Below, in pieces: positions 1-8,720 of a stretch of 64,000 nucleotides of DNA. Below the pieces are notes generated by a model, which saw nothing but the letters and a program-made list of their open reading frames with translations, ran no database searches and was not told the DNA's origin. This DNA comes from an uncultured Roseobacter sp. (lineage in GTDB: Bacteria > Pseudomonadota > Alphaproteobacteria > Rhodobacterales > Rhodobacteraceae). A program made the translations under genes and the position numbers. The DNA lies in contig NZ_CANMDB010000010.1 of the NCBI RefSeq assembly GCF_947496515.1, positions 155,994 through 219,993 on the forward strand. Reading direction: 5' to 3'. Every line of letters starts with the position of its first letter. Position 1 is the stretch's first letter.

Positions 1-256
1 TGATGGCGCGTCGACCCAGAACCCAGTCAAGATCGTCTATCTCTGCGACCATCACACCGCAGACGGCAGTATCGCGACCCCGCGCGATCACACCCAGCCG
101 GGGCTTGTCCTGATCGTATATCACCCGCCGAGCCATGGCCTCGACGGCAGCGGGATCCAGCCCAAAGGCCTGCCATTCGGATTCCTCCAGCATCTCCCGT
201 GCCGCTTGTGTAACATCGGCAATATCAGCGGGCTTGAGCGGGCAAAGCGACGTCAC
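1..256 (-). CDS. GNAT-family acetyltransferase, N-terminal part (cut by window edge)
   Basis: Reading the minus strand from a GTG at 256 gives an open frame of 85 codons that runs off the window with no stop. The start overlaps the TGA of the preceding gene (GTGA), as is usual in this operon. The N-terminus reads LKPADIADV, then an amphipathic helix, then a strand LGVIARGRD followed by VCGVMVAEID. This is the layout of the first helices and strands of GNAT N-acetyltransferases. The acetyl-CoA loop lies outside the window, so the family call rests on the N-terminal half only. As last visible gene of the RiPP operon it could N-acetylate the product or protect the host, but this is inference. 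Confidence 0.55.
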   Translation of the reverse strand, partial: MTSLCPLKPADIADVTQAAREMLEESEWQAFGLDPAAVEAMARRVIYDQDKPRLGVIARGRDTAVCGVMVAEIDDLDWVLGRRAI

Positions 257-1140
257 GGCGTACACCAGAGCGTGCCGTCCGCCTCGATTTCGCGCGGTTT
301 CACCGGGCATCGGGCATTGGCCTGCCAGCTTAACCGATGGATGATCCCATCGGTCGGCATCCCAGCCAACAGCGCTGGCACGTCTCCGGCCCTGGGGCGA
401 CCAACGATCCCGACACTGCCGTCCTGGCTCAGCACCATCTGCCGCGCACCGCGACACAAGGAGAGACCCCGCGTGCCATCGGATAAATGGGCGGGCGAGA
501 CCTGCCACCCGTCAAGCTCCAGCTGCACCGCCAGTGCGAATGTCTCGCGCGGCTCAGACAGCGCCTGGATCCAGACCGCCTCCCCGACCTCTTCCCATCG
601 CGGCCATACTGTCCGGGGCCGCGGGGGCAGCGGGTAGACCGGGACTGCGGTGTATCTGTCCCCCTGCCGCGTGGCGCGGAATGTCATGCTCTCGCCCGCG
701 AGCCGGAGCGCGAAATAGGCGTGATCCGCCGTGATCGGCGGCACGGCAGCTGTCGCCGGTGCCAGATGGACCTCGAGCGTCTGCGCGCCCTGCCGCGGTG
801 CTGCCGTGAGCATGGCGGTGATCAGCGGATCCTCCGCTCCAATATTGGCCGCGCTGCCAAACTCTTGCGTCCAGAGGGCAGCGCCCAGCCAGACAGCCCA
901 TTCGAAGTTCACCGGACCGTCGCGGGCACAGGATGCAACAGGGCGCGACAGTTCATAGAGCGCGTGGATCTGCGCCCGCGTCTCCGCTCGGGACCGCCTG
1001 AACCGGTGCAACAGATCCTTGAGCGCGGGGGGCACGGGCTGCTGCAACCGATGTTCGATTTGCGCGATCCGGTCCTGTCGCAGCGCGGTCTCATAGTCAG
1101 CGGCATCAAAGACCGGGTGGGTTTGGGTCGCGCCTAGCAT
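253..1140 (-). CDS. Unknown protein of the RiPP operon
   Basis: A 295-residue protein that I do not recognise. The ATG at 1140 overlaps the stop of the glutamine-synthetase-like gene by 7 bases, so the two are probably translationally coupled. This start is preferred over one 63 bases upstream, which would extend far into the neighbour. There is no signal peptide or membrane segment. The first 80 residues are rich in charged helix with many Arg/Glu. The middle has WLGAALW and aromatic-rich stretches, and the tail ends in LWCTP. Being embedded in the biosynthetic operon suggests a role in modification or scaffolding of the peptide, but no domain supports a specific function. Confidence 0.75.
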   Translation of the reverse strand: MLGATQTHPVFDAADYETALRQDRIAQIEHRLQQPVPPALKDLLHRFRRSRAETRAQIHALYELSRPVASCARDGPVNFEWAVWLGAALWTQEFGSAANIGAEDPLITAMLTAAPRQGAQTLEVHLAPATAAVPPITADHAYFALRLAGESMTFRATRQGDRYTAVPVYPLPPRPRTVWPRWEEVGEAVWIQALSEPRETFALAVQLELDGWQVSPAHLSDGTRGLSLCRGARQMVLSQDGSVGIVGRPRAGDVPALLAGMPTDGIIHRLSWQANARCPVKPREIEADGTLWCTP

Positions 1141-2396
1141 CCCAGATGAAGCTGCATTTCCGCAACCGACGCGGACATTGCCAGCGCATCCAGCTCCCGG
1201 CACCGAAAGGCACGGTAGGCGGGGGCAAAACGCGGGTGCGCACCCGCCGCCTCCAGCACAGGGCCCAAGGCGTCCATCGCCTGATCAAGCAAGGGCCGCA
1301 TGGCCAGCACCGGCGCATAGTCAGGCACAGGCATCGGCTCGGGCGCGCGCAGAAAGAGGCTGGCCAGGATCACGGTCAGCATCGCGTAAGGGTCGCCTGA
1401 CGCATCGGGAAAACGCAGCTCGATCCGCCCCACATCTCCGCCGCCAGCGTGGATCAGACGGATCAACGCCCGTCGGTCCGCGTATCCCGCAACTGGACGA
1501 CCGCCAAGCCCCTGCCGCATCATCCACAATCGTCTCAGCCCGGAGGGTGACGGGGTGCAGAACGCCGACAGGCTGGGGATGGCGGCCGCGAGCGTCCGCA
1601 GGATCCGCCGCCCCTCATCCGAGCGTCTGCCGCCGGTGTAGAGCATATCCTGCCCCGCACGACCGGCGGAGATATGGACATGCAGCCCGCTGCCGGGGCA
1701 CCAGGACAAGGGCAGCGGCATGAAGCTGGCGGTCAGCCCGTCGTGATCCGCCATCTCGTGTGTCGTGAGTTTCAGGACCGATAGCGCATCACAGGCCGCC
1801 ACCGGCGGTTGCGGCGCCAGCGCGATTTCCTGCTGGCCGGGACCCGCTTCGTGATCGTGATGTGTCACGCCGACACCGCGCGCCGCCAATTGCTGCACGA
1901 TCCGGCGACGCAGCTTTGCGTGCCGGTCAAAAGGCGGGGGCCGAAACTGCATCCGCGGATAGCCGACCCGGTAGGGTTGCGGATCTGCGGCGTCACGCAG
2001 AACCATATCGACGCTCTCCAGCCGGACCCGGCTGTGGCTGAGACCTGTCTCCACCTCCGCCTTCTCAAAGATGTAGAATTCTGCCTCCAGACCGATGCGC
2101 AGCTCGATCCCCTGATCGGCCAGCAAACCGGTCACCCGACCGAGCATCGCCCGGCTGTCGAACCACGCAGGAGAGCCGTGGCGGGCGTGGGTGATGGTGC
2201 CGAACGCCAGCTCTGCCGTGGCCCCGAAGCTTGCGGCCGCGTCGGGGTGAAAGACAAGATCGCTGTGCTGAGGGCGGCACCATTCAGGCAGAACGGAGCC
2301 TGAGAAACTGCCGGAGCTTTTCTGCGGTATGGTGCAGATCCGGCCCGCCATGTCGGTAAACACGAACGCAGGCTCCGGCGCATCATCCCCCATCAT
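1134..2396 (-). CDS. Glutamine-synthetase-like carboxylate-amine ligase
   Basis: About 420 residues with the glutamine synthetase catalytic fold. Visible motifs are GLEAEF (residues 102-107, metal-binding Glu pair), a THHDHEAGPGQQE stretch (178-190) replacing the usual HHEVxxxGQxE, SGLHVHIS (236-243, ATP/substrate His) and RIELRFPD (324-331). The family makes gamma-glutamyl phosphate and transfers it to ammonia or an amine. It is shorter than housekeeping GlnA and resembles the gamma-glutamyl-polyamine-synthetase-type branch more. Start: ATG at 2396 or 2393, overlapping the end of the upstream gene. In a RiPP operon it may amidate or ligate a carboxylate on the peptide (Asp or C-terminus); the substrate is not visible from sequence. 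Confidence 0.8.
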   Translation of the reverse strand: MMGDDAPEPAFVFTDMAGRICTIPQKSSGSFSGSVLPEWCRPQHSDLVFHPDAAASFGATAELAFGTITHARHGSPAWFDSRAMLGRVTGLLADQGIELRIGLEAEFYIFEKAEVETGLSHSRVRLESVDMVLRDAADPQPYRVGYPRMQFRPPPFDRHAKLRRRIVQQLAARGVGVTHHDHEAGPGQQEIALAPQPPVAACDALSVLKLTTHEMADHDGLTASFMPLPLSWCPGSGLHVHISAGRAGQDMLYTGGRRSDEGRRILRTLAAAIPSLSAFCTPSPSGLRRLWMMRQGLGGRPVAGYADRRALIRLIHAGGGDVGRIELRFPDASGDPYAMLTVILASLFLRAPEPMPVPDYAPVLAMRPLLDQAMDALGPVLEAAGAHPRFAPAYRAFRCRELDALAMSASVAEMQLHLGC

Positions 2397-2820
2397 CGCC
2401 GAGCGGTTCGGGGCGCAGCACAACGCGGAACGGGCGTTCGGCATCCTGGGTATAGAACAGGCCGAAAAGCGTATTCTGCGCATCCGGTTCCAGGACGATC
2501 ATGTTGTGCTCTCCCATCCAGATGATGAGCTCTCCGCCCACTTCGCGGCAGGGAGTGATCGTCTCGCCCGCTTGCTCCACCAGCACATTTTCACCCCATG
2601 ACACATACGCCATGCAGCCGCCTGCATCGTCAGGTTGCAGAGCAAAGACCACGTCGAGCGTTCCTTCCCATTTACCCTGCCACAGCCCCGCAAAGTCGGC
2701 GAACTGCGGTGCGACCTCCTGCGCGACCGTCTCTGGCCGCGGCGCAGGTGCAAGCGTGTCCGCCCCATCACTTGCCCAGACACCCGTTGCCGACAAACAC
2801 AAGATGAGCAGCCATCTCAT
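2383..2820 (-). CDS. Small secreted protein of the RiPP operon
   Basis: A 145-residue protein with a Sec signal peptide (MRWLLILCLSATGVWA, cleavage near residue 16-17) followed by about 128 mature residues. The body alternates short hydrophobic strands with WQGKWEG, YVSWGEN and IIWMGEHN, suggesting a small beta-barrel. It has two cysteines in the mature part (GGCMAY and TPCREV) that could form a disulfide in the periplasm. The start ATG overlaps the stop of the methyltransferase gene by 4 bases. It is the only exported product in the operon, so a role in product binding or self-protection in the periplasm is an attractive but untested idea. No family recognised. Confidence 0.75.
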   Translation of the reverse strand: MRWLLILCLSATGVWASDGADTLAPAPRPETVAQEVAPQFADFAGLWQGKWEGTLDVVFALQPDDAGGCMAYVSWGENVLVEQAGETITPCREVGGELIIWMGEHNMIVLEPDAQNTLFGLFYTQDAERPFRVVLRPEPLGDDGG

Positions 2821-3956
2821 GAGGTGCGGACCGTCGCAGTAAGGGACAGCGCCGTGCCGTCCGCAGTAGGCTCGCCCGTCCGGATGGAGAGATCACCCGG
2901 GGCGGGGCGCAAAACCGCCGTCCAGCGCGCGATCAGGCGGTCCAGCTCGGCGGAGGCCGCCTCGGCGCTGCCCTGCACCAGCACACCGTCGCGGTCGGTG
3001 ATCGTGACAGCGCCGCCCGGATAGGTCGTGCCATAAGCCCAGCCGGGCGTGGGCTTTCCTGTCGCCGGGTCGGGCCTGCGGGTGAAAAAACCGGTGTCTT
3101 CCGTCGCAGCCACAAAGGACCGCAGACCAAAGCCCGGATCCGGCAGACGGGCAATGCGCGCGCTCAACGTCTCGCTACGGGGGCCGGGGTGCGACAGTCT
3201 GGTGGCGTCACGCCAGTCCGGCAGCAGGGCCGCCACGCTGAACACGCCCGACGCAGGGACAAAAAGCGTCGGCAACTGGGACATCACCTGTCCCGAGCGG
3301 TTCAGCATCAGCGACGCGTTCACCGCATGCGCCATGGTCACCGGCAACAACAGTACGCCCTCGGGGCTCAGTGCGTCCAGCATGACGCGCGGCACCCGGT
3401 CAAACGCGGCTGTCGCCACGATCCTGTCCTGCGGTGGCAGACCCGGCAGCACGTCGTTGAAGTCACCTTCGTGCAACACCAGGTTCCGGGGGCCGATCCG
3501 GGCCTGCCGGGCAGCCGCGGCGCGTGCAACCTCCGGCAAAATCTCGATGCCATGCACGATGCCCTCGGTGCCCACACGTCGCGCCATCATGGCAGCCATC
3601 CAGCCGCAACCCGATCCGATCTCCGTGACATGGTGCCCGGGCTGCAAATCCAGGAGAGAGATGAATTTCAATACGATCGACGGTGCCGATATGGTCGACA
3701 CCGGCAGCCCCACATTATCGTAGGCCAGCACGAGCGGCGCGTCGCTCCATACCTCTTTGGACTGCTGCGGACTGGCGTCAAAGCTCTTGAAACGCGGCGC
3801 GCCCATCACGGCGTAGCGATCCGCGTATCGTTCGCGCGGCACCTCCCGGAGCAGCGACAGCAGTTCCTCATCCTCGGCCAGTTCGGGGAATTGTCGCAGG
3901 ATCTGACGGACCAGCCCGTCCATCAGCGCGGTGCTGTCCTCTGCCGCGAGCGTCAT
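2817..3956 (-). CDS. Protein-L-isoaspartate O-methyltransferase-like enzyme with C-terminal extension
   Basis: 379 residues. The N-terminal 220 residues match the PIMT (PCMT) family: STISAPSI near 87-94 (substrate loop), then the SAM-binding motif EIGSGCGW at 112-119, and IVATAAFDRVP later. The remaining 150 residues form an extra domain absent from housekeeping PIMT. PIMT homologues in other RiPP clusters methylate an Asp side chain, leading to aspartimide or isoaspartate (imiditides and lanthipeptides with OlvSA). The precursor tail here has three Asp residues (51, 56, 63), so a similar role is plausible. It overlaps the SagB-like gene by one base at its start and the secreted-protein gene by four at its end. 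Confidence 0.85.
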   Translation of the reverse strand: MTLAAEDSTALMDGLVRQILRQFPELAEDEELLSLLREVPRERYADRYAVMGAPRFKSFDASPQQSKEVWSDAPLVLAYDNVGLPVSTISAPSIVLKFISLLDLQPGHHVTEIGSGCGWMAAMMARRVGTEGIVHGIEILPEVARAAAARQARIGPRNLVLHEGDFNDVLPGLPPQDRIVATAAFDRVPRVMLDALSPEGVLLLPVTMAHAVNASLMLNRSGQVMSQLPTLFVPASGVFSVAALLPDWRDATRLSHPGPRSETLSARIARLPDPGFGLRSFVAATEDTGFFTRRPDPATGKPTPGWAYGTTYPGGAVTITDRDGVLVQGSAEAASAELDRLIARWTAVLRPAPGDLSIRTGEPTADGTALSLTATVRTS

Positions 3957-4801
3957 CAGACGGGCGTCTTTTCATCAGTGGCGCCCAGCAGGATGCAGCC
4001 GATCACCGTCTCGTCCACGCCGTTGACGCCCAGGATCGCGTTGATCTCATCGTCGATATAGCCGCCCCAACAGAGGCTCGCCAATCCTTCGGCTGTGGCG
4101 GCATCCAGCAGGCATTGTGCCGCGCAGCCCGCCTCCGTCAGGGCAAACCTGTAGCCGCGCGCGCCATATTTCGCGGTGCTGCGCTGGTGGATCACCGTTT
4201 GCAACACGACAGCCGCCGGTGTGCCCAGCCGGTCCTGATCTGTCGCCAGCACGCCAAAAAGCCGCTGGGGGGAGAGCCCGGTGGCAACCTGTGCCAGCGC
4301 ACCACGATGCGGATCAACGTACCAGGCGTCAAACGCCGTCCCGGTCTGGCCCGGCAGCAGCGCATAATGCTCCACCGGGAACAGACCACCCGCCGACGGA
4401 TACCGCCCGAGCGCATAGACCACATCCTCCAGCGCGGCGGCCTGTCTGCGCCGGTCCCGGCGCAGTGCGGTGGCAAGGGTACGCTCCACTGCACCCAGAT
4501 GCTGCGCCGAATAGGCCGGGAAGCGGCGCGCGGACTCGCGCAGCCCCGCCTCACCCGCCGCTGGCGGCAACGGGCGCGATGGCGCATCAAGATAAACCTT
4601 GTATCCATGCGCCCCGGCCCTCACCGTGGCCTCGTTGCGCAGATGCGGGATGATCCGGTACCTGTGCGCGCGGATGTTGCTCTGCCGCAGCTTTGTGTTC
4701 TCCGCAAACAACTCCACCAGATCGTGACCGTCGCGCTCCATACCCGCGATGCGGATCGTGGGGGTCACACTCGACAGGGGCAGACGCTCGGTGAGGGACA
4801 T
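3956..4801 (-). CDS. SagB/ThcOx-type FMN-dependent azoline dehydrogenase
   Basis: 281 residues with the nitroreductase-like fold of SagB-type oxidases. The diagnostic RYPSAGGLFPVEHY stretch is present, as are ALTEAGCAAQ and the CWGGYIDDEINAILGV stretch near the C-terminus, matching the FMN-site helices of the family. These enzymes oxidise thiazolines and oxazolines, made by the YcaO cyclodehydratase, to aromatic azoles. It lies 17 bases downstream of the YcaO gene. Its presence implies that the mature product contains aromatic azoles, not only azolines. Confidence 0.88.
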   Translation of the reverse strand: MSLTERLPLSSVTPTIRIAGMERDGHDLVELFAENTKLRQSNIRAHRYRIIPHLRNEATVRAGAHGYKVYLDAPSRPLPPAAGEAGLRESARRFPAYSAQHLGAVERTLATALRRDRRRQAAALEDVVYALGRYPSAGGLFPVEHYALLPGQTGTAFDAWYVDPHRGALAQVATGLSPQRLFGVLATDQDRLGTPAAVVLQTVIHQRSTAKYGARGYRFALTEAGCAAQCLLDAATAEGLASLCWGGYIDDEINAILGVNGVDETVIGCILLGATDEKTPV

Positions 4802-4818
4802 TGCGGAACCTTCTTCGG

Positions 4819-6153
4819 TCAGGGAAAGGGATGGGGGTCACGGTTGAGCGTTACCTCGGTCACGCCCAGATGATGCGCCGCGACCTCCAGACGCCGGAGA
4901 TCGTCGGGAATGGCCAGACCGCTGTAGAGCGGCTGAAGCCCGGGCACGACGACCTTGCCCACCGCCAGACCAAGCTGTGCGGCATCAAGGCCGGTCATAT
5001 CGAACCACACCGGGATATGCCCCGCATCGCCAACCCGATCGAGCAATCGCTGCAATGTCTCCGTTGCGCTGCTACCCGGCGAGAAATCGGTGCTGTAGTC
5101 GGTCACGGGGCCTTCGGTCAGCCACCAGAAGGCAGGCTTGCGCGCGGGGTCCAGGTAGTATTCCGCGTGCTCCAGAAAATTCGAGATGTCCTCGAAGGCA
5201 ACGGGTTTCGTCCCCAGAAGCCTTTGTTGCGCCAGATAGGTCCAGCAGTGGATCGCCTCGCACACGGCCTTGGTGACGGCCTGATCCAGGGTGGGTTTGC
5301 ACGAGGCGCCGATGCAAAAGACCGATCCATCTCTGTTGGATAGCACGACGAGGATCGTGGGAATATCCACGTCCACGCGGATGTCGTAGACCCGCACCAC
5401 ATGCGACCGGCTCTCCATCAACTCACGCACCTGCCGGGGGAGCGAAAGCGTGCCCAGCTGAGCGGCGGGAATGGCGTTCGGCGCGCGGCGCAACATCCAG
5501 TGGCAGGCAAAGGCGTCACGCTCGATCACCTCGCACAACCCGCCAAGGCGCGCGGCATCGATGTCCTGCCCGGCGGCGATGCCGTTGGACGTATTATGGG
5601 ACAGCAGTTCGTGGTCGTGTTCCATGTGGTAGTTGAAGACAACCGTTTGCGCCGCCAGCCAGACCGGCTGCCCATCGAGCAGCGAGAGCCCGCGCACCCA
5701 CCCGCGCGGCAGGTCGCGGTCATACTCGTGAAAGAACACATCCGCGTCCGCCAGCATCTCCGGCGAGAACCGGATCAGCCGCTGCATGATGCTATCATCA
5801 ATACCCAGCTCATCACAGGTGCCGTGCACGATGGCGTCTTCGGGAAAGATCGCGGCGCTATAGCGCTCGACCGACTCGCCCACCGTCGCCCAGAGCGCAT
5901 CTGTGGCGTTGCACCCGAGCGCACCACCGCGAATGGCTTTTTCGCTGGCCCGGCTGCGTCCGCGGCGCAGGCGGCGCACATCGGCGAGGGAAGCGCTGTA
6001 TTGATGAAAACGCGGCAGATCATGGGGAACCGGCGTCTCCACCATCGTCTTGATCAGGCCAAAGCGGGGATGTGTGGCGCGCGCAATCGCATCGCGCAAC
6101 GCGCCCGGCAGAGCAAAACCGTCAATCCGCTTGATATCCGCCAGCTCAGTCAT
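4819..6153 (-). CDS. YcaO-domain azoline cyclodehydratase (D protein)
   Basis: 444 residues. YcaO ATP-site motifs are visible: GESVERYSA (residues 92-100, with Glu93, Glu96, Arg97) and CEVIERDA (207-214, with Glu208, Glu211, Arg212). A third block at CEAIHCW departs from the more usual EAxQxR. The C-terminus is DPHPFP, matching the proline-rich PxPxP tail typical of azoline-forming YcaO enzymes. It would phosphorylate backbone amides to cyclise Cys/Ser/Thr in the precursor, working with the E1-like protein encoded immediately upstream. The ATG at 6153 overlaps that gene by 8 bases. One of the strongest calls in the operon. Confidence 0.93.
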   Translation of the reverse strand: MTELADIKRIDGFALPGALRDAIARATHPRFGLIKTMVETPVPHDLPRFHQYSASLADVRRLRRGRSRASEKAIRGGALGCNATDALWATVGESVERYSAAIFPEDAIVHGTCDELGIDDSIMQRLIRFSPEMLADADVFFHEYDRDLPRGWVRGLSLLDGQPVWLAAQTVVFNYHMEHDHELLSHNTSNGIAAGQDIDAARLGGLCEVIERDAFACHWMLRRAPNAIPAAQLGTLSLPRQVRELMESRSHVVRVYDIRVDVDIPTILVVLSNRDGSVFCIGASCKPTLDQAVTKAVCEAIHCWTYLAQQRLLGTKPVAFEDISNFLEHAEYYLDPARKPAFWWLTEGPVTDYSTDFSPGSSATETLQRLLDRVGDAGHIPVWFDMTGLDAAQLGLAVGKVVVPGLQPLYSGLAIPDDLRRLEVAAHHLGVTEVTLNRDPHPFP

Positions 6154-7126
6154 TGACGTCCCGCTCGTGTGTCTCCCACACCAGCCGACCCGTTCGCACG
6201 GGCGATGCCGGGGCGAAATCCGGCCGGGTCCCGCACACAGCGCACCGCGGCGCCTTGAGCACGATACCGGCCTCGAAGGTACCCGAGAGGAACTCCTGCT
6301 CCCGCACCGTACCGAGTGGCGCGGTATGCTCCATCCCCGACATATGCGCGATCATCAGGGCGACGGCGTTTGTGGCCGCCGCCGTCGCCACCAAGGCACT
6401 CGGCCGCGCCACGGGTGGGGTGAGGGTGTCGTCCGGCTGCGCGGTCAACCAGTCTTCGGTGGCGCGACCCGCTTTGCCGTGCGCCGCGCGCCGTTCAAAG
6501 TGGCAGGCGTAGCAGGCTGCATCCTGCCCCCAGCACAGCGGCCCCGCGACCGCACGGGTCATATCCACATAGGCAAAGAGGTAAGGAAGGCCTGTCTTGG
6601 ACAGTCGCTCATTTTGTCGGGAGAAGCCGTCGTGATCCCAGTGGTCCGCGCAGACGATTGCGGCATCCGCCCCCTCGGCGCCCGGTGCGGGATCGGCCAG
6701 TGCCAGCCCCGCTTCGCGGCAGAGCGCTGCCACACGGCTCGCCACCTGACCGCTCCCGATAACCGACAGGACCGGTTGGGCGAGCGCCTGGGTGTCGACC
6801 CTCTCGGGATCGTCCCCCAGAACCTGCTGAAACGCGCGCCGGGCGAGGTCGAGAGATTGAACGAACATGTCTTCACTCCAACTCAGAGGTGTCTCGATCA
6901 GCGCGCCGCGGTTCTTCAGCGCCGCGAAACCCGGTGTACCCGGGCCCAGGACCCCCGATCGTAGGGCCGCAGCAAGCGCCTCGTTATCCTGAACCGCAAA
7001 GCTGTCGGTCGCACTGCGGAACATGATGCGACGACCGTGTTCGGGGCCCCGCTCCGGGTCCTCTTCAAACGCGGAGGGCGCGCGCGCAGTGAGGCGACGC
7101 GCATCCAGAGCGGGGTGCAAGTGCAT
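6146..7126 (-). CDS. E1-like TOMM partner protein (C protein, leader-binding)
   Basis: 326 residues. The N-terminal 60 residues (LHPALDARRL, then IMFRSATDSFAVQ) look like a RiPP recognition element that binds the leader peptide. A Rossmann-like segment VLSVIGSGQVASRVA lies near 119-133. Two CxxC pairs, CYAC (205-208) and CAVC (295-298), would form the structural zinc site of E1-like cyclodehydratase partners. The start lies 10 bases after the precursor stop. The Shine-Dalgarno TGAGG overlaps that stop codon, so precursor and partner are probably coupled. It is a stand-alone protein, not fused to YcaO as in many TOMM systems. Confidence 0.85.
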   Translation of the reverse strand: MHLHPALDARRLTARAPSAFEEDPERGPEHGRRIMFRSATDSFAVQDNEALAAALRSGVLGPGTPGFAALKNRGALIETPLSWSEDMFVQSLDLARRAFQQVLGDDPERVDTQALAQPVLSVIGSGQVASRVAALCREAGLALADPAPGAEGADAAIVCADHWDHDGFSRQNERLSKTGLPYLFAYVDMTRAVAGPLCWGQDAACYACHFERRAAHGKAGRATEDWLTAQPDDTLTPPVARPSALVATAAATNAVALMIAHMSGMEHTAPLGTVREQEFLSGTFEAGIVLKAPRCAVCGTRPDFAPASPVRTGRLVWETHERDVND

Positions 7127-7136
7127 GGATCAGACC

Positions 7137-7349
7137 TCAGGCGCGGACGCTGGAGGCCATGTCACAGAAGACGGTGCAGAAGTCCGGCGATTGCGTGTCG
7201 CCACCGCCGCCACCGCCTCCGCCACCACCGAATGTGGCACCCTGATCCTGATAGGTCTTGGGGTTGGCAAGCGCAGGTGCAGGGTCAAAGGTATCGTTGT
7301 AGCTGTCGAGGATCGCGATGGTGTCTTGGTCAGTCGTCGTGTGGTTCAT
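7137..7349 (-). CDS. RiPP precursor peptide with ten-glycine spacer
   Basis: A 70-residue peptide. An acidic leader (residues 1-40) contains TIAILDSYNDTFDPAPALA, followed by exactly ten glycines (41-50) and a 20-residue tail with Cys58, Cys62, Thr52, Thr59, Ser54, Ser66 and Ser67 plus Asp51, Asp56 and Asp63. The glycines use GGT, GGC and GGA codons, so the run is kept at the protein level rather than being a simple DNA repeat. Microcin B17's precursor has a comparable glycine run between leader and heterocyclised residues. The ATG at 7349 has a GGAGA ribosome site 7 bases upstream. It is the first gene of the operon that encodes YcaO, E1-like and SagB proteins. Confidence 0.85.
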   Translation of the reverse strand: MNHTTTDQDTIAILDSYNDTFDPAPALANPKTYQDQGATFGGGGGGGGGGDTQSPDFCTVFCDMASSVRA

Positions 7350-7697
7350 TGTATATTCTCCGGTTTGGGGGATCAGACAGAAGTGTCCGCGATGATCCCG
7401 ATCGGTGATTAAACGCTGATATGGAAAGCCGCCGGGTTCGGCACTTTCGGCGATGACACTAACAAACGACCAATGACTACCGACGCGGGAATCGGATCTG
7501 GCCATGACCTTGGCAACTTCACGCTAAAGCACCCGCGTCGGCGCGGCAGCTTTCGGCTGTCGGCGAAACTTTACCTGCGCGGAACACTTGGTCGGGTTGC
7601 TTACCGCCGATTCGCAGCGGCGGGGAGCGTACAGCGTGCAGGGCAGTCGATCCTTCTGCGGAGACCGTCGTTGCGCGCAAAGTCTCAGAGCGACAGA
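7350..7697. other. Intergenic region upstream of the RiPP operon
   Basis: About 350 bases between the precursor start and the stop of the dehydrogenase gene to the right. It must hold the promoter of the RiPP operon unless the operon is read from further right. I see no convincing -35/-10 pair. A weak inverted repeat (CCGCCG at 7604-7609, CGGCGG at 7618-7623) could end the sugar operon but lacks a T tract. An in-frame upstream extension of the precursor to 7505 exists but has no ribosome site and is not credible. Confidence 0.5.
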
Positions 7698-8720
7698 CTA
7701 ATTCCTGGAAACCGGCTTTGAGCGCATGCGAGCCACGGTTTCACGCTCCGCGCGCTTGCAGCGCATCGGTGGCAGACCCTGATCCAGAAGCCGCAGATCC
7801 TCCAGCACCATGTCGCCCATCTGCTTGAACGCCACATCGAGCGCGCCCGCCCGGTGCGCGGACCGCAGGAAACCCGACAACTGCCGGACCTCGTGATCGC
7901 GCGGCAATGGCTCCTCCGGAAAGACATCACTTGCGGCAAGGATATGTCCCGACCGCACGGCGGCCATCAGATCATCGAAGTCGACCACATCCGCCCGGCT
8001 CAGCAGGATCAACCGCGCGCCCTGGCGCATCCTGGCAAAGGCGTCTGCGTTCAGAAACCCCTTGTTCTCCTGCGTGACACTGGCAACCACAAAGACCGTC
8101 TCACTCTCGCACAGGATCTCGTCCAGTGACGCGGGCCGGATCCCCGCCTCGCGCAGCAGCGAGGGCGGCAACCAGGGGTCAAAGGCAGAGATCTCCGCGC
8201 GAAAGCCCTGCAGCAACCGGGCAAGCGCACGTCCGAGATCCCCGAACCCGATGATCCCGATCCGCGAGTGCGACAGCAGCCGGGCGCTGTGATTGCTGTC
8301 CCCGCCCCAGATCTCGCGCCCCTGCCGAAACGCCAGATCCGCGTCGATCACATCGCGCGCCAGACACAGGGCCATCGCCAGACCGATCTCGGCCACCGGC
8401 TCGGCAAAGACAGCCCCCGTGGTGACCACATGGATGCCCCTTTCGAACAGATGATCATAGGGCATGTTGTTGATCAGATTGCTCTCCACGTTGAAGATAC
8501 AGCGCAGATTTTCCATCTGCACCAGCGTCTCGCGTGACAAGGCAGGCTGACCGATGATGTAGCTAATCCGTCTCAGGGTCTGCGGATCGAGGGTTTCGAT
8601 CTCCTCCGGCGCGACCTCCAGCAGATCGTAGTTCGCATGCAAGGCGGCCCGGGCCTCCGCCGAAAAAATCAGATCGAGCGACCGGGGATCGGGTGCGGAA
8701 AGGACAAGCGGTTTGGTCAT
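7698..8720 (-). CDS. D-isomer 2-hydroxyacid dehydrogenase family protein
   Basis: 340 residues. The NAD-binding Rossmann motif GIIGFGDLGRALA is in the middle, followed by LLSRADVVD (catalytic Arg), SDVFPEEPLP and SAHRAGALD (catalytic His region). This is the order seen in phosphoglycerate/glyoxylate/hydroxypyruvate-type dehydrogenases. The start at 8720 (ATGA overlap with the kinase stop) is chosen over 8816, which would run through the kinase gene. Last gene of the sugar operon, so it probably oxidises or reduces an acid intermediate of that sugar's breakdown. Substrate unknown. Confidence 0.85.
   Translation of the reverse strand: MTKPLVLSAPDPRSLDLIFSAEARAALHANYDLLEVAPEEIETLDPQTLRRISYIIGQPALSRETLVQMENLRCIFNVESNLINNMPYDHLFERGIHVVTTGAVFAEPVAEIGLAMALCLARDVIDADLAFRQGREIWGGDSNHSARLLSHSRIGIIGFGDLGRALARLLQGFRAEISAFDPWLPPSLLREAGIRPASLDEILCESETVFVVASVTQENKGFLNADAFARMRQGARLILLSRADVVDFDDLMAAVRSGHILAASDVFPEEPLPRDHEVRQLSGFLRSAHRAGALDVAFKQMGDMVLEDLRLLDQGLPPMRCKRAERETVARMRSKPVSRN

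What the first reader, a model, noticed from the sequence alone, without database searches (positions are those of the whole stretch)
1..7349. TOMM-type RiPP operon with an unusual set of carboxylate-modifying enzymes
Nine overlapping genes encode a precursor, a stand-alone E1-like partner, a YcaO ending in PHPFP, a SagB-type dehydrogenase, a PIMT-like methyltransferase, a secreted protein, a glutamine-synthetase-like ligase, an unknown protein and a GNAT. Cyclodehydratase plus dehydrogenase define azole biosynthesis. PIMT- and GS-like enzymes both act on carboxylates, and I know of no described azole pathway that combines them with YcaO. The gene order implies coordinated expression and probably a new class of azole peptide with a modified Asp or C-terminus.
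Basis: partly seen in the sequence, partly recalled or inferred. Interest (0 to 1): 0.95.

Follow-up and report, generated by a model that had tools for sequence, protein, structure and literature searches.

The report
Azole-peptide operon with extra carboxylate enzymes
A bacterium carries a compact, rare gene cluster that is predicted to make an azole-containing peptide and likely to modify it further with an aspartate-type methyltransferase and an altered glutamine-synthetase-like ligase, an enzyme that our paper searches did not find described in an azole-peptide cluster.

Summary
Nine packed minus-strand genes (7349 to 1; the ninth runs off the window) encode a 70-residue precursor, E1-like partner, SagD-type YcaO, SagB-type dehydrogenase, PIMT-type methyltransferase, secreted protein, GS-like ligase, unknown protein and probable GNAT. 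The set recurs in the same order, with three more conserved genes, in Actibacterium ureilyticum; a third, partial copy is known. Its YcaO has no match in the other 18 genus genomes searched. The core is almost frozen: 18 synonymous, 2 amino-acid changes in 35 codons. The azole reading is well supported. The PIMT has an extra C-terminal domain alignable with those of RiPP-type PIMTs. The GS-like protein keeps residues aligned with the ATP, metal and glutamate sites of glutamine synthetase but lacks both ammonia-site residues in both genomes; it likely joins a carboxylate to something other than ammonia. The genome has separate, higher-scoring PIMT and GS genes. Azole plus PIMT was noted before (2 clusters, Lee et al. 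2023); azole plus GS-like was not found in the papers searched, though one key paper on GS-like ligases was not available. Verdict: new variant of linear azole peptides, product unproven.

The parts
7137..7349 (-). Precursor peptide, 70 aa: leader about 1-36 (boundary inferred), Gly-rich and Cys/Ser/Thr/Asp core 37-70 (no Lys in 37-70)
   Evidence: ORF (start codon by orthologue comparison); 2 homologues, P0052 and P0053, in a search of 5.8 billion proteins; 35 codons incl. stop: 15 same, 18 synonymous, 2 nonsynonymous vs A. ureilyticum; residue positions
7200..7229 (-). Ten glycine codons (residues 41-50), a possible microcin B17-like spacer
   Evidence: Gly10 in the three precursors seen (window, P0052, P0053); 5 of 10 codons differ synonymously between the two genomes
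7140..7199 (-). Core segment, residues 51-70, with Cys58, Cys62 (predicted thiazoles) and Asp51, Asp56, Asp63
   Evidence: sequence; identical in three precursors except M/L and A/G
6146..7126 (-). Stand-alone E1-like partner (leader-binding 'C protein'), two CxxC pairs
   Evidence: TIGR03882 40.9 bits over its cut-off 36.9; CxxC at 205 and 295; 68% identical in A. ureilyticum; solved-structure search only weak, MccB E 0.66
4819..6153 (-). YcaO cyclodehydratase, SagD type, ends PHPFP
   Evidence: PF02624, TIGR03604 over cut-off; E93, E96, R97, E208, E211, R212 invariant in the 22-sequence alignment A1
3956..4801 (-). SagB/McbC-type dehydrogenase, KY motif at residue 211
   Evidence: PF00881; TIGR03605 69.6 bits, below cut-off 78.4; McbC 6gos E 2.5e-11; motif (its importance recalled)
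2817..3956 (-). PIMT-type O-methyltransferase with an extra C-terminal domain (about residues 235-379)
   Evidence: PF01135 101.3 bits; C-terminal domain alignable with RiPP-type PIMT frames, WTAVLRP in place of WxxxGxP
2383..2820 (-). Small protein with a signal-like N-terminus (read by eye), two conserved Cys; role unknown
   Evidence: 74% identical in A. ureilyticum; no confident family or structure match
1134..2396 (-). Glutamine-synthetase-fold ligase without the ammonia-site residues
   Evidence: PF00120; alignment to Salmonella GS 1f1h and to the orthologue
253..1140 (-). Unknown protein, 295 aa, conserved (46%)
   Evidence: no confident family; AlphaFold model failed, pLDDT 37.1
1..256 (-). 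N-terminal part of a probable GNAT; the gene continues outside the window to L003:7710
   Evidence: family assignment weak

Best explanation
This is a linear azole-peptide (LAP/TOMM) type gene cluster whose precursor is predicted to receive thiazoles at Cys58 and Cys62, an aspartimide or isoaspartate at one core Asp, and likely a further amide bond made by an altered glutamine-synthetase-fold ligase. Steps: (1, inferred from families) the E1-like protein binds the leader and presents the core to YcaO; the Gly10 tract acts as a flexible spacer, as in microcin B17; SagB oxidises the azolines. (2, inferred) The PIMT-type enzyme methylates one of Asp51, Asp56 or Asp63; the ester would close to aspartimide and could open to isoAsp. 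(3, inferred, least certain) The GS-like enzyme makes an acyl phosphate, most likely of the gamma-carboxylate of free glutamate, and hands it to an amine other than ammonia; as residues 37-70 hold no Lys, the N-terminus freed by leader removal is the likeliest acceptor. (4, inferred) The leader is removed by a protease encoded elsewhere, such as TldD/E, and the product is exported. Shown here: genes, order, conservation, residue differences, few amino-acid changes in the core. Not shown: any modification, activity or product.
For: LAP enzyme set beside a core with 18 synonymous to 2 amino-acid changes in 35 codons (a plain count between two genomes, no formal test). The same E1-YcaO-SagB order occurs in eleven of the named betaproteobacterial loci (L007-L010, L012-L018); in L008 a 45-aa Cys-rich ORF lies upstream of E1. 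The PIMT C-terminal domain can be aligned with RiPP-type PIMT frames, and LAP clusters with such enzymes and a core Asp are on record. GS-like: residues aligned with E129, E131, E212, E220, H269, H271, R321, R339, R344, E357 and R359 kept; D50 is Ser and E327 is Gln (window) or Asn (orthologue) (roles recalled). Separate PCMT and GS genes exist. Two PF01523 (TldD/E family) genes in the genome. Polyglycine of microcin B17 is a spacer needed for heterocycle processing (PMC3622597 passage); TldD/E cleaves its leader (PMC5810440 passages).
Against: SagB score is under the NCBIfam cut-off. Only two Cys in the core, few for a LAP (general knowledge). PIMT scores about the same on RiPP models (93.7 and 86.7 bits) as on housekeeping ones (92.0, 89.7, 84.7), all far below cut-offs, and the Gly of WxxxGxP is Leu. 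N264 of GS aligns with Pro, so the glutamate pocket may be altered too. No ATPase-type transporter gene and no protease was recognised in the cluster. PF01523 genes are common (10 of 14 control genomes), so they say little. No biochemical evidence.
Confidence: 0.6

Rival explanations
1. The GS-like enzyme activates a carboxylate of the precursor itself (a core Asp side chain or the C-terminus) and closes it with a core hydroxyl or the N-terminus, so it plays the part that ATP-grasp ligases play in graspetides; the PIMT then acts on the constrained peptide.
For: Ammonia-site residues lost; three Asp and five Ser/Thr in residues 51-70; outside the imiditides, RiPP PIMTs are described as methylating only modified or folded substrates (PMC13001092 passages); the GS-fold enzyme PafA uses a peptide carboxylate (recalled).
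Against: The residue aligned with R321, which binds a free alpha-carboxylate, is kept (role recalled); the precursor C-terminus is Ala/Gly, not Glu or Asp.
Confidence: 0.25
2. The GS-like enzyme makes a small molecule (for example a gamma-glutamyl amine) used for regulation, self-protection or nitrogen supply and does not touch the peptide.
For: Glutamate-site residues largely kept; best NCBIfam hit is type I GlnA, 142 bits, below its cut-off 429.15.
Against: Close relatives found only in this operon and its orthologue (one other protein above 32% identity, 1 of 390 genomes); the gene overlaps its neighbours.
Confidence: 0.2
3. The YcaO makes a backbone change other than azoles (thioamide or amidine), and SagB acts elsewhere.
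For: YcaO enzymes also serve in thioamitides and bottromycins (PMC8939145 and PMC4603692 passages).
Against: SagD-type YcaO over cut-off with E1-like and SagB-type partners; no TfuA hit among the nine genes.
Confidence: 0.08
4. The cluster is a decaying remnant with no product.
For: Very rare: the full set was seen in 2 genomes.
Against: The genes are open in both genomes; 18 synonymous to 2 amino-acid changes in the core.
Confidence: 0.03

Closest known systems
[quoted passage not shown]
   Same: E1-like, YcaO and SagB/McbC-type enzymes; leader plus Gly-rich spacer plus Cys/Ser/Thr core; possible TldD/E leader removal
   Different: PIMT-type and GS-like genes; only two core Cys; three conserved core Asp; activity unknown
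LAP clusters with PAMT (Lee et al. 2023, PMC10787088; 2 clusters)
   Same: Azole enzymes with a C-terminally extended PIMT and an Asp in a C/S/T/G-rich core
   Different: The section read names no organism and no GS-like gene; figure and supplement not seen, so one of its two clusters could be the A. ureilyticum one
Aspartimide RiPPs (imiditides/pamtides, grasp-, lanthi-, lassimiditides)
   Same: PIMT with extra C-terminal domain; conserved core Asp
   Different: Scaffold predicted to be azole, not thioether, lasso or ATP-grasp crosslink; motif is WxxxLxP
Type I glutamine synthetase (GlnA) and GS-fold ligases
   Same: Catalytic domain and aligned ATP/metal/glutamate residues
   Different: Both ammonia-site residues lost; sits in a peptide operon
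GS-like amidoligases of Iyer et al. 2009 (known here only by its title in reference lists; paper not held)
   Same: Title names GS-like and acetyltransferase-like amidoligases in peptide modification
   Different: Could not be compared; whether it already predicts a case like this is unknown
Thioamide cluster with a tfuA gene bearing a PCMT domain (Nonomuraea solani, PMC8120280 passage)
   Same: YcaO-type cluster with a PIMT domain
   Different: TfuA-dependent; no SagB or GS named in the passage seen

Membership tests
Linear azol(in)e-containing peptide (LAP/TOMM) cluster | YcaO cyclodehydratase of SagD type | tested here: met
   TIGR03604 235.2 vs 219.25
Linear azol(in)e-containing peptide (LAP/TOMM) cluster | E1-like leader-binding partner | tested here: met
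   TIGR03882 40.9 vs 36.9
Linear azol(in)e-containing peptide (LAP/TOMM) cluster | SagB/McbC dehydrogenase | tested here: inconclusive
   TIGR03605 69.6 vs 78.4, not reached; PF00881 reached; McbC hit 2.5e-11; KY motif
Linear azol(in)e-containing peptide (LAP/TOMM) cluster | Precursor with leader and Cys/Ser/Thr core next to the enzymes | tested here: met
   leader boundary inferred
Linear azol(in)e-containing peptide (LAP/TOMM) cluster | Azoles in the product | not testable with these tools
   needs mass spectrometry
RiPP-associated PIMT (PAMT) | PCMT catalytic domain | tested here: met
   PF01135 101.3 vs 20.3 bits
RiPP-associated PIMT (PAMT) | Extra C-terminal domain | tested here: met
   MAFFT with 10 frames from three actinobacterial genomes picked by TIGR04364/TIGR04188; 4 of 10 (L111, L114, L117, L120) are over the TIGR04364 cut-off, none over that of TIGR04188; L129 was cut short by my script and L125 matched weakly. 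Alignment made by the program; no profile score for this domain
RiPP-associated PIMT (PAMT) | WxxxGxP motif (said to be shared by lasso, graspetide and imiditide PIMTs) | tested here: not met
   WTAVLRP / WVAVLRP, Gly replaced by Leu; exact motif in 4 of 10 comparison frames (L112, L123, L124, L129), none of them over a family cut-off
RiPP-associated PIMT (PAMT) | Over the NCBIfam cut-off of TIGR04364 or TIGR04188 | tested here: not met
   93.7 vs 320 and 86.7 vs 380 bits
Glutamine synthetase (true GlnA) | ATP, metal and glutamate residues | tested here: met
   eleven aligned residues kept; N264 aligns with Pro (choice and roles of residues recalled)
Glutamine synthetase (true GlnA) | Ammonia-site residues D50 and E327 | tested here: not met
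   Ser, and Gln/Asn, in the two genomes
Graspetide cluster | ATP-grasp ligase | tested here: not met
   no ATP-grasp hit in the nine genes (the GNAT gene complete)
Thioamitide cluster | TfuA partner of YcaO | tested here: not met
   no TfuA hit in the nine genes

The most novel reading that the evidence does not exclude
A glutamine-synthetase-fold enzyme has been recruited as a peptide ligase in RiPP biosynthesis: having lost its ammonia site, it joins a carboxylate (free glutamate's, or a core Asp's) to the azole-bearing peptide, giving a glutamylated or macrocyclised azole-aspartimide peptide, a combination that our searches did not find described.
Probability: 0.45. Interest if true: 0.85.

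Novelty: new variant of a known kind. Interest (0 to 1): 0.62.

Why it matters
If the GS-like protein acts on the peptide, it would add a ligase fold to RiPP tailoring, beside ATP-grasp, and show how a central-metabolism enzyme can become a peptide ligase by losing its ammonia site. It also gives a small, complete operon in which an azole peptide and an Asp-directed methyltransferase can be tested together; in the review passages read, aspartimides are listed for lanthipeptides, lasso peptides, graspetides and imiditides, not for azole peptides (PMC13001092).

Tried and rejected
Housekeeping paralogues: rejected; the genome holds separate higher-scoring PCMT (199.6 bits) and GS (453.7 bits) genes; in all, 7 PF01135 and 7 PF00120 matches, the operon's included.

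Plasmid spread: 14 YcaO plasmid records, best row 28.7-29.9% identity, so no close plasmid relative. Clean empty site: two congeneric genomes with the neighbouring SDR gene (L109, L110) align with the region only at that gene, so insertion boundaries could not be proved. The gene just upstream had only distant matches (31-35%) in 3 of 18 congeners.

Fold of the unknown protein: model unusable (pLDDT 37.1) and not searched. Sequence searches of solved structures for the unknown, membrane, GNAT-like and secreted proteins gave nothing below E 0.3. Membrane protein L003:6154-6963: model pLDDT 65.7; the 50 Foldseek rows shown are ABC transporters, but the best E is 4.1e-3 and TM-scores are under 0.5, so only a lead. 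Promoter and terminator scan of 1-8000: no promoter-like site, 4 terminator-like sites against 4.2 in shuffles.

Literature: searches for YcaO or azole peptides with glutamine synthetase (1, 6 and 3 papers) gave no such pathway in the titles, abstract starts or passages seen; not all of these papers were opened. One search (20 rows shown of 1,721) listed five papers with 'glutamine synthetase-like'; in four of them I looked, and the only mention is the reference to Iyer et al. 2009; the fifth, PMC11356490, was not opened. Iyer et al. 2009 itself is not held, so a prediction of this kind there cannot be excluded.

Weak points of the rarity claim: one search kept 80 of 111 relatives found by one pattern; one search saw only the fetched flanks, some cut short by contig ends; searches scored only 7,996 and 7,997 candidates; one search drew 394 genomes from a larger family; one search drew 390 genomes, did not list A. 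ureilyticum as a match (so it was not drawn or was missed), and scored 4 candidates in each genome listed. Orthologue ranges given to searches were approximate at the N-terminus.
Full report
Observation. The minus strand of 1-7349 holds nine consecutive genes, six of eight junctions overlapping and two with gaps of 10 and 17 bases. Families: YcaO (PF02624; TIGR03604 over cut-off), E1-like partner (TIGR03882 over cut-off), nitroreductase-fold SagB type (TIGR03605 under cut-off), PCMT, GS catalytic domain; the secreted and unknown proteins have no confident family, and the GNAT label rests on appearance plus a marginal PF14542 hit in the orthologue. The window cuts the GNAT gene; the contig around it was read as L003.

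Conservation. tblastn of each gene against Actibacterium ureilyticum (L005; named record L006; Roseobacteraceae) found every member: precursor 80%, E1 68%, YcaO 86%, SagB 75%, PIMT 70%, secreted 74%, GS 67%, unknown 46%, GNAT 62%, in the same order. Beyond the window three more genes are conserved: a membrane protein on the minus strand (L003:6963-6154, 64%) and, on the plus strand between it and GNAT, a small protein (L003:7251-7421) and a 134-residue protein (L003:7421-7825), about 52% each over the aligned parts. The neighbouring genes tested, the dehydrogenase upstream and the SDR downstream, have no match in L005. In A. ureilyticum the last gene lies 45 bases from a tRNA-Met gene.

Rarity. 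YcaO: 2 of 394 family genomes, own included; 1 of 19 genus genomes, own included. In the GTDB 220 contig collection one pattern gave 111 relatives, 80 kept; only L006 is close (86%), the next is 35%. In the protein database only P0002 (86%) and P0003 (80%) are close, the next 37%. GS: one close relative (68%), then 32% or less; 1 of 390 genomes of the order, own, though A. ureilyticum was not among the matches. Precursor: two homologues. P0003 and P0053 both come from a contig of 4,344 bases, so the third copy is partial and its other genes are unseen. Of the 80 named loci, L006 has PIMT and GS homologues at E 1e-4 and 79 have neither. On this evidence the combination is one lineage, seen complete twice and in part once.

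Precursor. Residues 37-70 plus stop, 35 codons: 15 identical, 18 synonymous, 2 nonsynonymous between the two genomes. The Gly10 tract is kept although 5 of 10 codons changed. A polyglycine spacer is needed for heterocycle processing in microcin B17 (PMC3622597 passage). Core sites: Cys58, Cys62; Asp51, Asp56, Asp63; Thr and Ser; no Lys after residue 36.

PIMT. The catalytic domain matches solved PIMTs (2yxe E 2.5e-23). The extra C-terminal domain was aligned by MAFFT with 10 frames from three actinobacterial genomes: W345 falls on the motif Trp of L112, L123 and L124, but the motif reads WTAVLRP/WVAVLRP, not WxxxGxP. The four frames over the TIGR04364 cut-off lack the exact motif, and the four with it are under the cut-offs. 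NCBIfam scores do not separate RiPP from housekeeping models for this protein. Passages of the review PMC13001092 say that RiPP PIMTs carry such a domain and methylate one Asp, giving aspartimide.

GS-like. Against Salmonella GS (1f1h, E 4.8e-32) the residues aligned with E129, E131, E212, E220, H269, H271, R321, R339, R344, E357 and R359 are kept; D50 aligns with Ser and E327 with Gln (window) or Asn (orthologue); N264 aligns with Pro. I counted positions on the printed alignment; residue roles are recalled. Reading: acyl-phosphate chemistry kept, ammonia likely no longer the acceptor.

Mechanism and novelty. See Best explanation. Azole with PIMT is on record as two LAP clusters (PMC10787088, section 8 read, passages; figure and supplement not seen). 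A thioamide cluster with a tfuA gene bearing a PCMT domain is on record (PMC8120280 passage). For YcaO or azole peptides with glutamine synthetase, searches returned 1, 6 and 3 papers, none describing such a pathway in what I saw; Iyer et al. 2009 on GS-like amidoligases is cited in several RiPP papers but is not held, and most subscription journals are not held. Hence 'new variant of a known kind', with the GS-like ligase the interesting part.

Noticed in passing
L003:7251-7825 (+), outside the window: Two conserved plus-strand genes (a small protein with a hydrophobic N-terminus; a 134-aa protein starting MRLHPARDR) lie convergent to the GNAT gene in both genomes; no confident family.
   Followed up: partly
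L003:6154-6963 (-), outside the window: Conserved helical membrane protein without a recognised ATPase domain; weak Foldseek resemblance to ABC transporter membrane domains (best E 4.1e-3).
   Followed up: partly
L005:3769-3891: In A. ureilyticum the cluster ends 45 bases from a tRNA-Met gene, a possible integration site; no tRNA was found in L003 of the window genome.
   Followed up: partly
L002 (G000:C6:242330-242647): A second, distant YcaO reading frame (31% over 103 residues) in the same genome.
   Followed up: no
L008:8743-8880: In a Rugamonas LAP-like locus (E1-YcaO-SagB) a 45-aa ORF with a Cys-rich tail lies upstream of E1.
   Followed up: partly
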